64,000 nucleotides of DNA from an uncultured Erythrobacter sp. (GCA_947488155.1 CANKYK010000001.1:930001-994000), one strand, 5' to 3'; shown: positions 52,770 to 62,583, counted from the first letter of the stretch. Made by a program: numbers and translations. Notes: generated by a model not told the origin, from the letters alone.

Positions 52770-53245
52770 AGAGATTCCATGAGTGCGAAGTCAATGCATT
52801 CAAGTCGAAGGCGTCTGCTTTCCATCTGATGATTGCCAACCTTTGTCCGATGGTTTGGCGTTGCGAAGCGCTATCTCGGTCAAAGCCATATGGGGACCAC
52901 TTTCATTCAGTGCTCAAATGCGGCCCCCATCGTGGCCCCAACCATACTGCGATTGCAGACAAGCTAGACGGACGCCAGCAACCAGGAAACCGTGCATTCT
53001 TGGCAGATTTCTGCGGTTTCTTCAACCGTTAGTGACTTGTGATGATGTGTAAATGGTGTCAGAAGAGGACTCGTTTCCCTTCCTTACTACTCTGTATTAT
53101 TGTATTTTTATGGTAGTCTTGTTCAAGAAAACCCTCATTTATACCCCCATCATACTATAGTGCTCTTTGCGTGACACCCTCGAGCAACATCATAAATACC
53201 CGATGTGTGATCCAAACTTTGGGTGCGTAGTGAAAGCGGGGCGCC

Positions 53246-53403: not shown

Positions 53404-53700
53404 ATGGGTCGTAAATGCCGTGGCCTATTGCGCCCACTATTTCAAGTTAGTGGTGTGCATCGAGTATCTGGAAAAAACGATCCTGAGGACATCCTCACTA
53501 GGTTGGGTAGTTCTATTAGAGCTGTCAGGCTGCAGGAAGGATTGTCTCAAGAAGCTTTGGCCGACGCATCCGAGATTGATCGTTCGCATCTTGGGCGAAT
53601 TGAGCGGGGCGAACGAAATTTGAGCATCCTGAACCTCAAGAAGATCGCTGGCGCACTCGGGCTTACCGCCGCTCAATTGCTTGAGCTGGCTGGAGGCTAA
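53404..53700 (+). CDS. XRE-family HTH regulator
   Basis: LGSSIRAVRLQEGLSQEALADASEIDRSHLGRIERGERNLSILNLKKIAGALGLTAAQLLELA. Start uncertain. Confidence 0.88.
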   Translation: MGRKCRGLLRPLFQVSGVHRVSGKNDPEDILTRLGSSIRAVRLQEGLSQEALADASEIDRSHLGRIERGERNLSILNLKKIAGALGLTAAQLLELAGG

Positions 53701-53929: not shown

Positions 53930-56635
53930 ATGCGAAACTGCCTCGTTCTCTCCCAACATCGAGATGAGGCAAGTGAGTACAACGACTTCATCGGAAAGTT
54001 CTACCACTTCCCTGCCAATAGATCGAAATCATACCTTAGCCAGTTTGATAGGCTGCCTATTGAGTTCATCTATTACGAACCCAAGTCAGAGGGTGGGCGC
54101 GGAGAGTTCTTTGGCTTTGGCCGGATAACCAAACCTCCGTTCAAAGATAAACGGGAGAGCGACCACTACTTTGTAGAGATTGATGACTATAAGCCTTTTG
54201 GGCAACGAGTCCCCTATAAAGATGACGAGGGTAATGTCCGTGAAGCCAGTAGCGAGAGCTACAATCCACAAAACGCCGTCCGGCGAATCCCGGAAACGCT
54301 TCTAGATGAAATCTGTCTCGACGGTGAGATACAACTCAACTTCAACTCGGACGCTCACCTAATCAAAGTCTTAGGTGAGCAACTGATAGCATCCGAAAAG
54401 GTTGGTGTCTTAGAGCTTATCAAGAATGCATACGACGCGCACGCAAGCTACTGCCATGTCACCATCGAGAACTCGCCGGAGCTCAGAGAGCTTCCCGACG
54501 AGTACTATAGGTTTTCGAGGTTTCCTGGCCCAGTCATTGTAATCGAAGATGACGGTTTGGGGATGGACCGCCAAACGATAGAGAATGGCTGGCTAAGGCC
54601 TGCATCCATTATCAAGACACACGTCAAGGATGGACTGAAAGCGGAACGCCAGAACGCGTTGGAGCGCGGTAACCTTGAGATTTTCAACGCATTTGTGAGT
54701 GAGCTAAAAAAGGCAAACAAGGGCAGGATCCCTCTCGGTGAAAAGGGAGTAGGGCGCTTCGCCTCCCATCGCCTCGGCAGATCTCTCGAACTGACAACAA
54801 AAAAGGCCGAATTCGACTATGAATTCGTTCTCAAAATCGATTGGGATCGATTTGACAAATATGAGGCCGTGGGCGTTGATCTTAGGGACATTGGAATTGG
54901 ACTGTCTCGCCAAAAACCATCACGAGATTATGGCCCTACCAACTCTGGAACTCGACTTGTTATATCTGGAGGTAGAGAGAGTTTTGGGTGGAGTGAAACA
55001 AAGATCATCGATCTTAGCCGGTCCATAACTCAACTCAACTCGCCTCATCCCAATCCGGCCAACGAAGACTCGACATTCGTTGCCACACTCGACGTGCCTC
55101 AACTTCCTGATCTGGAAGATCAGAACACCCTCGAATTCGACCCCACGTTCCAGCTCGTTGGGCTGGTCGATGAGAGGGGCAATCTAGATTACACTTTGAC
55201 CTTTGAGCCACCTAAGAGCGTTCCAATGGCTCGATCGGTGGAAGCCGATGTCACTGATTTAACCATGCTTTCGGAAGTGGGCCATTGGAAGCAACGTAAA
55301 GGCAAGCTCACGGAGTGCGGCCCTTTCTTTTTGAACATCAAACTCTGGTACCGACGGGCACCGTGGATTTCCGGTCCAAACGCCTCGAGCTTTATGGAGC
55401 GATTGGACCGATACGGCGGAATCTCAATTTATCGTGACGGCCTCAATGTGTTCCCAGCGGAATGGGGAGCCCAAACCGATTGGCTAGGGCTGTCAAAGGC
55501 ACACATCAAGCAAGGCAAGCGTCTATCTTACTACAATATGGTAGGGAACGTAGAGATCGATCAGGGCGCAAATATTGGACTCACGGACAAGACGAACAGA
55601 GAGGGCATGGTCGAGAATGACGCCAATGCTGATTTCATCATCCTCCTACGCACAATCATAAAGACTATTGTTGAAAATGCTTGGATTGCAAAACGCGACG
55701 AATATACTTCTTTAACAAAGGAAGTGATTAGAGACCCCAAAGCGCTACAGAAATTTGGAAAACAATCGCTCGCGATCCATAAGAGTATCGACACAGGCTA
55801 CCCCATTGAGCAAGATCCGTTCAACATTCTGACCGCCCTGGGTGACGACCCGACAGTGCGCGCAGAACGACACAGCGACCTCACAAGATCACTGGAAGAC
55901 CTTCAAGCGAGCCTTGATCTGATCTCGGACCAGCAAGATTTGCTTACGGAGCAGGCTGGTTACGGTCTCGCGATCGCCTCTTCGATCCACGAGATAAACA
56001 AGATTACGACGAATTTCTTTTACGGAATCAACGAGGTCCTAAAGTCTAGTAGGCCTAGCAAGGAGAGGCTTGAACGGTTGAAGGACAACTCCTCCTCCTT
56101 GCGCGGCGAACTAAAGAGATTGTCCCCTCTAATGGCCCTGCGTGGTGAGAGCCGAAAGGACTTTAAGATTTCGCGCGCAATACGTCTGGCTATTGAAAAC
56201 TACCGAACAAGAATGAAGGATAATGATGTTACATTAATTCTCGATGCAACGGACGATTTCGAAGTCTTTGCAAGATTCGGTGCAATCGCGCAGGTTTTTT
56301 CAAACCTCTTAGACAACTCGTTATACTGGCTGGACAACAGCGAGAATGAGAAGCGCGAAATTAGAATTAAGATAGATAGCGATCATCGCAGCGTATTATT
56401 CTCAGACAATGGGCCAGATATTCATTCCGCAATTATACCTCACTTGTTCATGCCTGGGTATAGCATGAAGGTACCTAGGAGTGGATTAGGTCTCTATATC
56501 TGCAAGTACTACATGCAAGATATGAAGGGTGACATTCAAAATCTCCAGAGTCCGAAGTATAGAGATCCAGAGATGAAGGGCGCTCAGTTTTTCCTAGACT
56601 TTAATATGGTTCGACGAGGTAATAATCACGTATGA
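53930..56635 (+). CDS. double GHKL-ATPase protein (HSP90/MORC-like N-terminal + histidine-kinase-like C-terminal ATPase)
   Basis: VLELIKNAYDAHA, VIEDDGLGM, IPLGEKGVGRFASHRLG (N-terminal N/G1/G2 boxes) and FSNLLDNSLYWLDN, LFSDNGPDI, GYSMKVPRSGLGLYICKYYM (C-terminal boxes). Confidence 0.88.
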   Translation: MRNCLVLSQHRDEASEYNDFIGKFYHFPANRSKSYLSQFDRLPIEFIYYEPKSEGGRGEFFGFGRITKPPFKDKRESDHYFVEIDDYKPFGQRVPYKDDEGNVREASSESYNPQNAVRRIPETLLDEICLDGEIQLNFNSDAHLIKVLGEQLIASEKVGVLELIKNAYDAHASYCHVTIENSPELRELPDEYYRFSRFPGPVIVIEDDGLGMDRQTIENGWLRPASIIKTHVKDGLKAERQNALERGNLEIFNAFVSELKKANKGRIPLGEKGVGRFASHRLGRSLELTTKKAEFDYEFVLKIDWDRFDKYEAVGVDLRDIGIGLSRQKPSRDYGPTNSGTRLVISGGRESFGWSETKIIDLSRSITQLNSPHPNPANEDSTFVATLDVPQLPDLEDQNTLEFDPTFQLVGLVDERGNLDYTLTFEPPKSVPMARSVEADVTDLTMLSEVGHWKQRKGKLTECGPFFLNIKLWYRRAPWISGPNASSFMERLDRYGGISIYRDGLNVFPAEWGAQTDWLGLSKAHIKQGKRLSYYNMVGNVEIDQGANIGLTDKTNREGMVENDANADFIILLRTIIKTIVENAWIAKRDEYTSLTKEVIRDPKALQKFGKQSLAIHKSIDTGYPIEQDPFNILTALGDDPTVRAERHSDLTRSLEDLQASLDLISDQQDLLTEQAGYGLAIASSIHEINKITTNFFYGINEVLKSSRPSKERLERLKDNSSSLRGELKRLSPLMALRGESRKDFKISRAIRLAIENYRTRMKDNDVTLILDATDDFEVFARFGAIAQVFSNLLDNSLYWLDNSENEKREIRIKIDSDHRSVLFSDNGPDIHSAIIPHLFMPGYSMKVPRSGLGLYICKYYMQDMKGDIQNLQSPKYRDPEMKGAQFFLDFNMVRRGNNHV

Positions 56636-58120
56636 TTGGGACGAACATCTGCATTATCGATGACGGATTCCGTCATCCCGCAGTCGAACTCGAAATTGAA
56701 AGCCATTCCTATTTCTCAGGTTCCGCAATCAGCGGCAATGGCAAAGAAAGAATGGGAGCAAGACCCTATACTGAGGCGTCTTTGCCTGTTGTTACTCGAA
56801 GACAGAATGGAGGATGCAACTCCAAAATGGAGCCTCGCTGGCTTCCGCCAGCCCCAGTTCTATCGCGAAGCATTCAACGCTGGAAAATACCGAGCAGATC
56901 TAATTGTATTTGACTGGGAATATGATGGCAATGTCGATCAGGTATCTGAGCTAAGGAAAATCCTTACTGGCACTCACAGCGAAGTCTTCATCTTCACAGG
57001 TGCCGACAAAGTCGACCAGATTAACATAATACTTGCTGAACATTTAGGGGAGTTTAAGGCAAGACTCATTGTTATTGACAAGAACGGCGAAGACGATCGA
57101 CAACACGAGATCCTACATGATCGACTGACAAAGAAACAGTCAGAGTGCTTTGCCTTTAGATTTGGCAGTCAGTTGCGTGCGACCGTAAACAAGAGTCTCG
57201 ATGAAGCGTTGCACAAGCTCTCCACTTTAGACATTCAAAGGATATTGTATTTGCTTTCGAGTGAGGAGGGTCAGGCCGATAACACTGAATTCAAAGAGAT
57301 GCTTGGCGAAAAAATAAAGAACGGGCTTCAAGAGAATGAAGCGTTGCGGGAAGCTCTCAAGGCGAAAGGGGTGAGCGGCAAAGCCTACGATGAACTGCTC
57401 GAGGTTGTCGGTGAGATAATGAAGAATGACGTGGGCTCCGAAGAACTTGTCAATGCTCCTGTTGAGAACGGCGAAGAAAGAGAGCACGACAAGGAAATCA
57501 TAGAAGCTCTTTGGTCGTATCGACTGTACCATAAGCCATCGGATGATCGTGTTAGGACGGGAGATATCCTGGAGCGAGAAGACGGATCCGAACAATTCCT
57601 TGTGCTCACACCGCCCTGCGATCTCACTCGCTTTTGGAAGAATACAGGCGGGATATTGTCGCTAGTGCAGCTTCACGATATCGATGAGAAAGCACCCGAG
57701 TTGAGGAAGTTGGCAGCTCTGACAAGAGCCTTGAAGGAATACAAGAAAAAGGACCGAAGAGTTACCTCTCTGACGAATCCACTCAGCCCACCCGGCGGCC
57801 AAACCCTGCTGCCATTTGTGCAACACGAGGAAGGTCGTAAAGACTATCTCGTCAAACTGAGACAGATACAAAGCATCTATGTAGCTATTCCCGAAAAGCT
57901 CAGTGGTGAAGAAAATCGCGGCGCACGTGCAAATGCGAGCTTGAGCTACACCGATGTCGGTTTTCGACGGATATGTAGAGTTAGCGATCCATTCAATGGA
58001 CCTCTAATCAGCACGGTTCTCGCAACGTTAGCAGGCTGGGGTGTAGAAGATTTCCCGGCCGAATTACAGAAGCAGCTCGGCACAAAACTCATTGAGACAT
58101 ACACAGAGCCGGCGCAATGA
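56632..58120 (+). pseudogene. receiver-like/response-regulator-like protein, apparent frameshift near 56730-56745
   Basis: Coupled ATG at 56632 encodes MIGTNICIIDDGFRHPAVELEIESHSYFSGSAIS, then the frame loses sense while the other frame continues MAKKEWEQDPILRRLCLLLLEDRMED...ADLIVFDWEYDG...VFIFTGAD to 58120. Confidence 0.6.
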
Positions 58121-59181
58121 ACATGTCCTACAACAGTATTGATCTTTTCGCTGGATGCGGCGGCCTAACCGAAGGTATGAGGCAAGCTGGCTTCGACACG
58201 AGAATAGCAATCGAGCTAGAAGCTAGTCCTGCAAGAGCTTTTCTTCTAAACCATGCCGATACCCGGTTGATCGAGAAAGACATCCGACAGGTTAAACTTG
58301 ATAAGGTAGAGGCAGAGCTCGCCGGTGAGCCGCTGCATTTGCTAGCAGGCTGCCCACCGTGCCAAGGGTTTTCGTCAGTCCGCAAGCTCAATCAGAGAGC
58401 TAGCGTTCGTGACCCTCGAAATAAGTTAGTTTTGGAGTATTTCCGCTTCGTCGAAAGACTTCGACCACAGACCCTTATGATGGAGAACGTACCTGGCCTC
58501 ACAGACTACTATCTCTTCAAAAAGATCGTTCGTGATCTGAAAGCTCTAGGCTACTTTATCGACTATCAAGTCGTGAACGTGAAAGACTATGGAGTAGCGC
58601 AAAGTCGACGCCGGCTTGTGATGGTTGGCTCCCTATTAGGAAAGCTATCCGTTGCAACAGGCATCGAGAAATTGGTGACCGTCAGGGAGACGATTTCTCA
58701 TTTGCCTCCGCCGTCGAAGAGTAAAGACAAGCTACACAAGATCGTCGCCAAACACACGCCAGCGGTACTGGAAAGGATAAGACTGACCCCAAAGGATGGT
58801 GGGAGCCGCAAGGATTTGCCACCTGAGCTCACGCTTAAATGCCACAACGACCCTAGAATTGGATTCAATGACATCTACGGTCGCTTGCGATGGGATGCGG
58901 TGTCGACGACAATTACCGGAGGGTGCCTAAACCCTTCAAAGGGACGATTCCTGCATCCGCATCAAGATAGAGTGATAACGCCAAGAGAAGCAGCATTGCT
59001 TCAATCTTTCCCGGAGGCTTACGTATTCCCAACGGATATTCCCAAGCACGATTTGGCATTGATGATAGGTAATGCGCTGCCGCCTGCCTTTAGCCACGCT
59101 CAATCGCTAAATATAAGAAAGCATCTGGAGGTCTATTCAGCGAATGCACACTCCCCAGTTATGCAGTCCTCGTGCAATTAA
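58117..59181 (+). CDS. DNA (cytosine-5) methyltransferase
   Basis: IDLFAGCGGLTEGMRQAGF, AGCPPCQGFSSV, LMMENVPGL, YGVAQSRRRLVMVG, RLRWDAVSTTITGGCLNPSKGRFLHP, IGNALPP; ATG overlaps preceding TGA. Confidence 0.97.
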   Translation: MNMSYNSIDLFAGCGGLTEGMRQAGFDTRIAIELEASPARAFLLNHADTRLIEKDIRQVKLDKVEAELAGEPLHLLAGCPPCQGFSSVRKLNQRASVRDPRNKLVLEYFRFVERLRPQTLMMENVPGLTDYYLFKKIVRDLKALGYFIDYQVVNVKDYGVAQSRRRLVMVGSLLGKLSVATGIEKLVTVRETISHLPPPSKSKDKLHKIVAKHTPAVLERIRLTPKDGGSRKDLPPELTLKCHNDPRIGFNDIYGRLRWDAVSTTITGGCLNPSKGRFLHPHQDRVITPREAALLQSFPEAYVFPTDIPKHDLALMIGNALPPAFSHAQSLNIRKHLEVYSANAHSPVMQSSCN

Positions 59182-61008: not shown

Positions 61009-62583
61009 ATGGACAATGTACGAAGAAATTCTGGCCGCAAAGCGAGAGAAGAAGCGCCTAAATTCGGTGCCTTTATAAGTTACAGTCATGCGGACGCTGC
61101 CAAAGTGCGCAAACTACACTCTCAAATAGAGGCTTATCACCTGCCCAAAGGGCTTGGCGCGATTGATGCACTCAATCACCGGCAAGGGAAACTCAACCGA
61201 GTCTTCCGCGATCGTGAGGACCTATCAGCGGCGCAGGATCTCTCCTCTGCCGTTACTGATGCGCTTGACCGATCCAATGTCTTGCTTGTTGCCTGTTCGC
61301 CTGATGCAAGGGCTTCGCGCTGGGTGAATCAGGAGATTGACTATTTCAAAGAGCACTATCCTGAAAGGCCAATACTGGCCGCGATACTATCAGGCGAGCC
61401 AGCTGAGGCCTTTCCCAACGCGCTGACTGAAGGCGGCGCGGAACCCCTTGCCGCTGACTTGCGTAAAGAAGGCGATGGTTGGCGATTGGGGTTCTTGAAG
61501 CTGGTAGCTGGCATCGCTGGCGTGCCACTGGACATGCTGATCGAGCGCGATGGACGACGACGAACGCGCCGCGTGATGGCCGTCACGGGCGTGGTCGCGC
61601 TTATTGCCGTAGCCATGGCTGCAATGACTACGGTCGCACTTCAGGCGCGCAATGAAGCACAGTTCCAGCAGACAGAGGCTGAAGGCCTCGTCGCGTATAT
61701 GATGGATGAGCTGCGCGATGAATTGAAAGGTGTTGGTAGGCTGGATGTGATGGCCGGCGTCAACAAACGCGCTCTGGAGTATTACACGAATCAGGGCGAT
61801 CTATCTGGTCTTCCGCCCGCTAGTTTGGAGCAACGCGCCAAGATTCTCCACGCCATGGGCGAGGATGAAACAGATACTGTTGATGGGGATCTCGAATCGG
61901 CGTTGGGAAAGTTCACGGAAGCGCATCGCACGACCAAAGAACTTTTGGCGCGCGAACCCGACAACCCTGATCGTATCTATGTGCATGCTCAGAGCGAATA
62001 TTGGGTCGGTTGGATCGCTGAACTGCGCGAGGACTTCCGCGGAGCGCATGCACAGTATGAGCGATACCGAGATCTCGCGCGTGAGCTGGCTCGGTTTGAG
62101 CCAGATAGCCACCGGACATTAATGGAACTTGGCTGGGGCGAGTTGAATGTAGGCATCATGTCTTTCAAGCAAGATGATCTCGTTGCTGCTGGAGAGGAGT
62201 TTGATCTGGCAATAAGTTCGTTTGAACAAGCCAATACCATGGCTCCACGGGATCGGTCTACGCAGGATGCCTTGGTCAACGCTCACGCATGGCGGTTCAA
62301 CACCCATTACAATCTGGGTGAGTTCGAGCAAGCACTTGATCAGCGAGCACAGAGTGTCGCGATTATACAGCAGGTCCTGGCTGACAAACCGGAGGATCGC
62401 GAGGCTCAATTTTCACTGCTGGTCGCGCAACGCGCAGTGGCCTTGACCCGAATAGAATTAGGGCAAATTGAGCAAGGACAGGCCGAGCTGCGGGACGTCG
62501 CTGCAAGAGCGCGCAGCCTAGCGCAACGAGACAGCTCAAATCGCGAATGGGCGGACTTCGCCAAGAAATTCCAAGCCAAATAG
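61009..62583 (+). CDS. TIR domain - TM - TPR protein
   Basis: KFGAFISYSHADAAKVRKLHSQIE...RVFRDREDLSAAQDL...SRWVNQEIDYFKEHYP (TIR); single TM VMAVTGVVALIAVAMAAMTTVAL; C-terminal TPR-like helices. Confidence 0.88.
   Translation: MDNVRRNSGRKAREEAPKFGAFISYSHADAAKVRKLHSQIEAYHLPKGLGAIDALNHRQGKLNRVFRDREDLSAAQDLSSAVTDALDRSNVLLVACSPDARASRWVNQEIDYFKEHYPERPILAAILSGEPAEAFPNALTEGGAEPLAADLRKEGDGWRLGFLKLVAGIAGVPLDMLIERDGRRRTRRVMAVTGVVALIAVAMAAMTTVALQARNEAQFQQTEAEGLVAYMMDELRDELKGVGRLDVMAGVNKRALEYYTNQGDLSGLPPASLEQRAKILHAMGEDETDTVDGDLESALGKFTEAHRTTKELLAREPDNPDRIYVHAQSEYWVGWIAELREDFRGAHAQYERYRDLARELARFEPDSHRTLMELGWGELNVGIMSFKQDDLVAAGEEFDLAISSFEQANTMAPRDRSTQDALVNAHAWRFNTHYNLGEFEQALDQRAQSVAIIQQVLADKPEDREAQFSLLVAQRAVALTRIELGQIEQGQAELRDVAARARSLAQRDSSNREWADFAKKFQAK

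What the first reader, a model, noticed from the sequence alone, without database searches (positions are those of the whole stretch)
53930..59181. Overlapping operon: double-GHKL ATPase, receiver-like protein, C5 DNA methyltransferase (candidate defence/epigenetic system)
Genes are joined by ATGA overlaps (56632-56635 and 58117-58120) with an XRE regulator just upstream, as in restriction-modification loci, but no nuclease motif was recognised. Bacterial GHKL/MORC-like ATPases linked to DNA methylases are known in broad terms (MORC-associated R-M systems). The kinase-like second ATPase plus receiver-like partner suggests a signalling logic (methylation state or phage sensing via a phosphorelay-like pair). 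Arg codons AGA/AGG appear common here, hinting at horizontal origin.
Basis: partly seen in the sequence, partly recalled or inferred. Interest (0 to 1): 0.75.

Follow-up and report, generated by a model that had tools for sequence, protein, structure and literature searches.

The report
Methylase operon with modified-base-sensing kinase pair
A horizontally acquired three-gene bacterial operon joins a DNA cytosine methylase to a sensor protein that probably reads modified DNA bases and to a signalling partner with a toxin-like end; it is a new variant of a known but untested class, and in this strain the partner gene is broken by a one-base frameshift.

Summary
The operon is real. It encodes a 901-aa protein (EVE-like N-terminal domain, GHKL ATPase/S5, HisKA-like DHp, second GHKL), a receiver protein, and a C5 methylase. 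Relatives 40-65% identical keep kinase-receiver-methylase linked in 20 of 20 untruncated loci from Alphaproteobacteria to Bacteroidota and CPR bacteria; 14 of these also carry a Vsr endonuclease, which this genome lacks. Kinase-receiver-methylase linkage with Vsr was published in 2021 (PMC8011034), so the basic finding is a known, experimentally untested class.

The ATGA start belongs to a 93-aa frame holding the receiver's acidic pair; the rest lies in another frame. All 20 relatives are unbroken there: a decayed copy or a sequence error.

Proposed mechanism (inferred): methylation-informed phosphorelay to a toxin-like effector.

The parts
53404..53700 (+). XRE/control-protein-like regulator, 98 aa; association with the triad uncertain
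   Evidence: PF01381 E=8.7e-16; PADLOC Control_protein E=5e-19; similar gene next to only one triad relative (L142, E=1e-12) plus a weak one (L135)
53930..56635 (+). Kinase-like paraMORC protein, 901 aa (EVE-like NTD, GHKL ATPase + S5-like region, DHp, second GHKL)
   Evidence: residues 135-900 align end to end with HEF_HK-type kinases (hhalign E=2e-106)
53930..54340 (+). N-terminal EVE/ASCH/YTH-like predicted modified-base reader domain
   Evidence: AlphaFold2 pLDDT 88, pTM 0.83; best PDB matches are EVE, ASCH, YTH and McrB-NTD structures, E from 5e-5; shared with an HNH_2 endonuclease
54401..54853 (+). First GHKL ATPase domain (HATPase_c_3), catalytic E162/N166, D207xG, G270xK
   Evidence: PF13589 E=1.5e-12; residues invariant in 20 relatives
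55910..56134 (+). DHp-like helical region with candidate phospho-acceptor H687 (codon 55988-55990), motif H-E-I
   Evidence: H687 100% conserved in the relatives; PF19191 itself not detected
56285..56593 (+). C-terminal histidine-kinase-type GHKL (HATPase_c), N792/N796/D826/GLGL
   Evidence: PF02518 E=1.4e-17; conserved
56632..58120 (+). Receiver (response-regulator-like) gene, disrupted by a frameshift; start in one frame (56632-56913), remainder in another (56636-58120)
   Evidence: relatives intact
56731..56740 (+). Approximate position of the frameshift (one extra nucleotide relative to relatives)
   Evidence: Frame-switch scan against L131, L132, L135
56659..56664 (+). Receiver beta-1 acidic pair (DD), in the upstream frame
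   Evidence: conserved DD/ND in relatives
56912..56914 (+). Receiver phospho-acceptor Asp (FDWEY), in the downstream frame
   Evidence: conserved in the receiver alignment
57476..58117 (+). Receiver C-terminal output domain, MazF/PemK-like predicted fold, GD[IV]...CD[L] motif (Cys codon 57617-57619)
   Evidence: AlphaFold2 pLDDT 82.5, pTM 0.76; the 35 best PDB matches are MazF-family, best E=2.5e-4; viral library: PemK-like proteins among the top hits
58117..59181 (+). C5 cytosine DNA methyltransferase, 354 aa
   Evidence: PF00145 E=1.5e-53; catalytic PCQ and target-recognition region conserved in 20 relatives

Best explanation
The locus is a horizontally acquired, methylase-guarded two-component-like system of the paraMORC/HEF_HK-Response_reg_2 class, in a variant whose sensor carries an EVE-like modified-base reader and whose receiver ends in a MazF/PemK-fold output domain. 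Most likely working: the C5 methylase marks a specific site in host DNA. When the state is wrong (unmethylated or foreign-modified DNA), its C-terminal kinase half autophosphorylates H687 and passes the phosphate to the receiver, whose output domain then acts as a growth-arresting or defence effector. In most relatives a Vsr endonuclease accompanies it, either repairing 5mC-deamination mismatches or acting as nuclease. Shown by computation: domain content, residue conservation, triad co-conservation, predicted folds. Inferred: direction of sensing, phosphotransfer, effector activity, defence role. In this genome the receiver reading frame is broken, so the copy as sequenced probably methylates but cannot signal normally.
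For: Kinase-receiver-methylase linked in 20 of 20 untruncated relatives (L050, L051, L131-L146, L148, L149) across phyla; Vsr adjacent in 14. Matched divergence of the three proteins (Mantel r 0.77-0.88, p=0.0005). Phosphorelay residues H687, receiver DD/D/T-S/K and both ATPase sites conserved. Kinase residues 135-900 homologous to HEF_HK-type kinases (hhalign E=2e-106). NTD fold matches EVE/ASCH/YTH/McrB readers, and the same domain fronts an HNH_2 endonuclease; the EVE-HNH enzyme VcaM4I flips 5mC/5hmC into such a pocket (PMC7897488). Output domain matches MazF/PemK in two structure libraries and the GD..CD motif is enriched in receiver partners (17/79 versus 2/298 other ORFs). NTD (45-73% identity) and methylase target-recognition region (55-80%) are more conserved than the whole receiver (21-43%), as expected for a shared reader/writer pair and a fast-evolving effector. 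Present in 1 of 100 genus genomes.
Against: No experiment on any member was found. MazF's catalytic arginine is not retained in the HMM register, and that sequence-level match is weak (P=0.009), so the output domain may not be an RNase. The EVE and MazF assignments rest on shallow alignments (21 and 18 sequences) and moderate TM-scores (about 0.6 and 0.65 by the shorter chain). An EVE reader would be expected to bind modified, not unmodified, DNA, so how self-methylation prevents firing is unclear. The window copy has a broken receiver.
Confidence: 0.5

Rival explanations
1. It is an unconventional restriction-modification system: the GHKL/S5 protein loops or remodels DNA, the methylase protects the host, and a nuclease (Vsr in most relatives, another in trans here) cuts. 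The receiver is a regulatory subunit.
For: Vsr next to the triad in 14 of 20 relatives; published models assign paraMORC ATPases and Vsr to R-M operons (PMC2292703; PMC8011034); a weak match of the first GHKL domain to BbrUII/HgiDII-type restriction enzymes.
Against: No nuclease domain in the three proteins, no Vsr above cut-off in this genome, none found by the search around L131, L138, L139, L140, L143. A conserved phosphorelay is not needed for restriction.
Confidence: 0.25
2. It is a cytoplasmic epigenetic regulatory circuit, not defence: the methylase writes marks, the reader-kinase senses them and the receiver regulates the operon or cell physiology.
For: Two-component architecture; XRE regulator upstream; PMC8011034 reports induction of one member's genes under stress.
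Against: Sporadic distribution (1 of 100 genus genomes; scattered phyla), frequent Vsr partners, and an output domain of toxin-like rather than DNA-binding fold.
Confidence: 0.12
3. In this genome the locus is decaying: an inactivated receiver has left an orphan methylase and kinase with no function beyond methylation. (This is about the window copy and can be true alongside the best explanation of the family.)
For: Frameshift in the receiver only in the window; in the same strain no Vsr.
Against: A single-base assembly or sequencing error would look identical; kinase and methylase frames are fully intact and keep every catalytic residue.
Confidence: 0.5
4. The frame change is a programmed translational frameshift that regulates receiver synthesis.
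For: The downstream frame is open across the junction; an annotated split of the receiver was also seen in one Pectobacterium genome (PMC8011034).
Against: All 20 relatives encode the receiver N-terminus without a break there; no recognisable slippery run or stop codon at the junction; the Pectobacterium authors attribute theirs to assembly or prediction error.
Confidence: 0.03

Closest known systems
HEF_HK (PF19191) + Response_reg_2 (PF19192) two-component-like elements with C5 methylases, paraMORC-related (Bellieny-Rabelo et al. 2021, PMC8011034)
   Same: Same gene trio, HATPase_c_3 + DHp-like + HATPase_c kinase, receiver with DD/D/T/K, adjacent C5 methylase and often Vsr; kinase homologous over residues 135-900.
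   Different: PF19191 not detected and PF19192 only below cut-off in the window (13.6 bits against 27; 25.7 bits in L050). Extra EVE-like NTD on the kinase; a MazF/PemK-fold output assigned here, whereas the paper found no other known domain in receiver proteins.
paraMORC/MORC GHKL ATPases in R-M operons (Iyer et al. 2008, PMC2292703)
   Same: GHKL + S5-like module linked to C5 methylase and Vsr.
   Different: Has an added histidine-kinase half and a receiver partner; no helicase or fused nuclease.
EVE-HNH modification-dependent restriction enzymes such as VcaM4I (PMC7897488)
   Same: Predicted EVE-superfamily reader at the N-terminus; the same domain occurs on an HNH_2 protein.
   Different: Reader is fused to a GHKL kinase instead of an HNH nuclease, and a cognate methylase is present.
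MazF/PemK toxins
   Same: Output domain's best structural neighbours in two libraries.
   Different: Catalytic Arg not kept in the HMM register; conserved Cys-Asp motif; fused to a receiver, no antitoxin.
Detocs (two-component phage defence; from own knowledge)
   Same: A kinase-receiver relay controlling a defence effector.
   Different: As recalled: no methylase, no EVE or paraMORC modules. Homology was not tested here.

Membership tests
HEF_HK/Response_reg_2 two-component-like class | Kinase with N-terminal HATPase_c_3 and C-terminal HATPase_c | tested here: met
HEF_HK/Response_reg_2 two-component-like class | PF19191 (HEF_HK) above cut-off between them | tested here: not met
   No PF19191 hit at E<=1, although residues 135-900 align to HEF_HK kinases and H687-E688 is conserved
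HEF_HK/Response_reg_2 two-component-like class | Adjacent protein with PF19192 above cut-off | tested here: not met
   Window 13.6 bits and relative L050 25.7 bits (E=1.4e-5) against cut-off 27
HEF_HK/Response_reg_2 two-component-like class | Receiver acidic pair, Asp, Thr/Ser, Lys | tested here: met
   Conserved in the family alignment; in the window split over two frames
HEF_HK/Response_reg_2 two-component-like class | Linked C5 methylase | tested here: met
   Window and 20 of 20 untruncated relatives
Type II restriction-modification system | Cognate restriction endonuclease | tested here: not met
   No nuclease profile in the triad, no Vsr in the genome; unknown nuclease fold not excluded
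EVE/PUA-superfamily modified-base reader | EVE-like fold | tested here: met
   AlphaFold2 + Foldseek, E 5e-5, TM about 0.6
EVE/PUA-superfamily modified-base reader | Pfam EVE profile | tested here: not met
   Only two of 21 members, best E=0.042
EVE/PUA-superfamily modified-base reader | Binding of modified cytosine | not testable with these tools
   Needs EMSA or structure
MazF/PemK toxin | PemK-like fold | tested here: met
   (predicted fold)
MazF/PemK toxin | Catalytic Arg in the second strand | tested here: not met
   HMM-HMM register places Phe/Leu there; weak alignment
MazF/PemK toxin | RNase activity | not testable with these tools
   Needs biochemistry
Known PADLOC defence system | Profile hits for the kinase and receiver | tested here: not met
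   None at E<=0.1; only the methylase hits generic MTase/DruM profiles

The most novel reading that the evidence does not exclude
A nuclease-free, methylation-guarded defence: a base-reading GHKL clamp-kinase converts the modification state of DNA into a phosphorelay signal that switches on a MazF-fold effector, which makes it a hybrid of restriction-modification, two-component signalling and toxin-antitoxin logic.
Probability: 0.3. Interest if true: 0.85.

Novelty: new variant of a known kind. Interest (0 to 1): 0.55.

Why it matters
The 2021 class had a kinase and a receiver but no known sensor input and no known output. Here both ends get a concrete structural assignment (modified-base reader in, MazF/PemK-fold domain out) in a sharply conserved subfamily spanning CPR bacteria to Alphaproteobacteria. 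That makes the open question of what paraMORC kinases do in methylase operons directly testable with an intact relative in E. coli.

Tried and rejected
RR protein as query: no close relatives on plasmids, in the first genome-contig scan or in 384 other genomes of the class; it diverges too fast, and the kinase alignment was the query that worked. Ordinary histidine kinase: rejected, because the N-terminal half is a GHKL/S5 paraMORC module. XRE as a fixed part: not supported, similar genes near only two relatives. Vsr or hidden nuclease here: none. Programmed frameshift: rejected, relatives unbroken. tRNA or RNA attachment site at 52.85-53.07 kb: no tRNA or Rfam match. Sequence search of PDB with the NTD and output profiles gave nothing meaningful; only fold comparison did. 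PemK profile comparison weak. A profile comparison of the receiver with a single PF19192 protein was weak too.

Full report
OBSERVATION. The first and third genes are as described: 53930-56635 (901 aa) and 58117-59181 (354 aa). Pfam finds HATPase_c_3 and HATPase_c in the first and a C5 methylase in the third. The ATGA overlaps at 56632 and 58117 are in the sequence. The second gene is not what it seemed. The ATG at 56632 opens a 93-aa frame beginning MIGTNICIIDDGF, which carries the receiver's acidic pair. The 494-aa frame is a different frame starting at TTG 56636 and carries the rest (FDWEY, FTG, DK). In the nearest relative, L131, one ORF begins MIGTNICIIDDGF and runs on unbroken. A frame-switch scan against three relatives puts the change at about 56731-56740. 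Twenty relatives have no break there. So the window holds a one-nucleotide frameshift, real or a sequencing error.

FAMILY. Scans with kinase alignments found L050 and L051 in viral contigs and L131-L149 in genome contigs, 40-65% identical over the full length including the N-terminal domain. They include Aliiroseovarius, Kordiimonas, Desulfovibrio, Bacteroidota, Aminicenantes and CPR bacteria (several are MAGs, so single assignments may be misbinned). Apart from the truncated L147, all 20 have kinase, receiver and C5 methylase together, and 14 have Vsr beside them. Divergence of the three proteins is correlated (Mantel r 0.77-0.88). Within the window's genus only the window genome, 1 of 100, has the triad; Arg codon use is atypical; and genus-conserved backbone matches stop at about 52.5 kb. 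This supports horizontal acquisition.

DOMAINS. Kinase residues 135-900 align end to end with kinases of the published HEF_HK type (hhalign E=2e-106). Both ATPase sites and H687 are invariant in the relatives. The first 135 residues are extra. AlphaFold2 gives a confident model (pLDDT 88) whose solved neighbours are EVE, ASCH, YTH and McrB N-terminal domains. The same domain precedes an HNH_2 nuclease domain in L026 and matches similar 300-330-aa ORFs in eight further loci. EVE-HNH enzymes such as VcaM4I flip 5mC/5hmC into an EVE pocket (PMC7897488). The EVE survey paper does not mention GHKL proteins (PMC7641849). The receiver half has the acidic pair, Asp, Thr/Ser and Lys; PF19192 is sub-threshold (25.7 bits in L050, 13.6 in the window). 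Its C-terminal output domain (57476-58117) was modelled at pLDDT 82.5. The 35 best PDB matches are MazF-family toxins, and several top viral matches are named PemK-like. A profile comparison with PemK sequences lines up the GD[IV] and following strand in the right order but weakly (P=0.009), and MazF's catalytic Arg is absent. A GD...CD motif recurs in 17 of 79 kinase-adjacent receiver candidates against 2 of 298 other ORFs, so this is one of several output types. Three Bacteroidota members instead have a short receiver and a separate ~180-aa protein.

MECHANISM. Inference: a fixed writer-reader pair feeding a fast-evolving effector. The GHKL/S5 module probably clamps DNA; the kinase half relays to the receiver; the output domain acts on the cell. 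Direction of sensing, phosphotransfer and toxicity are inferred. Vsr fits either repair of deaminated 5mC or cleavage; this genome has none above cut-off.

KNOWN VERSUS NEW. The kinase-receiver-methylase-Vsr linkage and the paraMORC link were published in 2021 (PMC8011034), and paraMORC R-M operons in 2008 (PMC2292703). That 2021 paper is one of only two in the held library that mention these Pfam domains, and no functional test of a member was found in the searches run. New here: the sensor and output assignments, the definition of this subfamily, and the broken receiver in the window.

LIMITS. Alignments for modelling were shallow. MazF-fold similarity is partial (TM about 0.35 by query length because of added helices and an insertion). 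Relatives outside the searched collections may differ. A protein joined across the two frames was used only as a search and alignment query.

Noticed in passing
window 61009-62583: TIR-domain (ThsB-like, PF08937 E=9e-12) protein with TPR-like repeats, downstream of the triad in the same accessory stretch.
   Followed up: partly
window 52852-53073: About 110-220 bp element repeated at other places in many genus genomes (70-90% identity), beside the start of the accessory region; no tRNA or Rfam match, possibly a mobile-element remnant.
   Followed up: partly
L139:6670-8076, L143:11685-13059, L144:8350-9728: In three Bacteroidota triads the receiver lacks the CD-motif output and a separate ~180-aa gene with a GGE...SGRYG-like motif sits between receiver and methylase: a different effector type.
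   Followed up: partly
L132:14019-15980: 654-aa ORF with a Vsr-like stretch and a hydrophobic N-terminus next to the Kordiimonas triad.
   Followed up: no
window 58117-59181: The methylase's closest solved structures by sequence are DNMT1 catalytic domains (E about 4e-37), ahead of HaeIII and HhaI methylases.
   Followed up: no
L035-L049, L052-L129: Many further GHKL-kinase plus receiver pairs of other subfamilies, some beside phosphoadenosine-phosphosulfate-reductase-like genes or Vsr, with several different output domains.
   Followed up: partly
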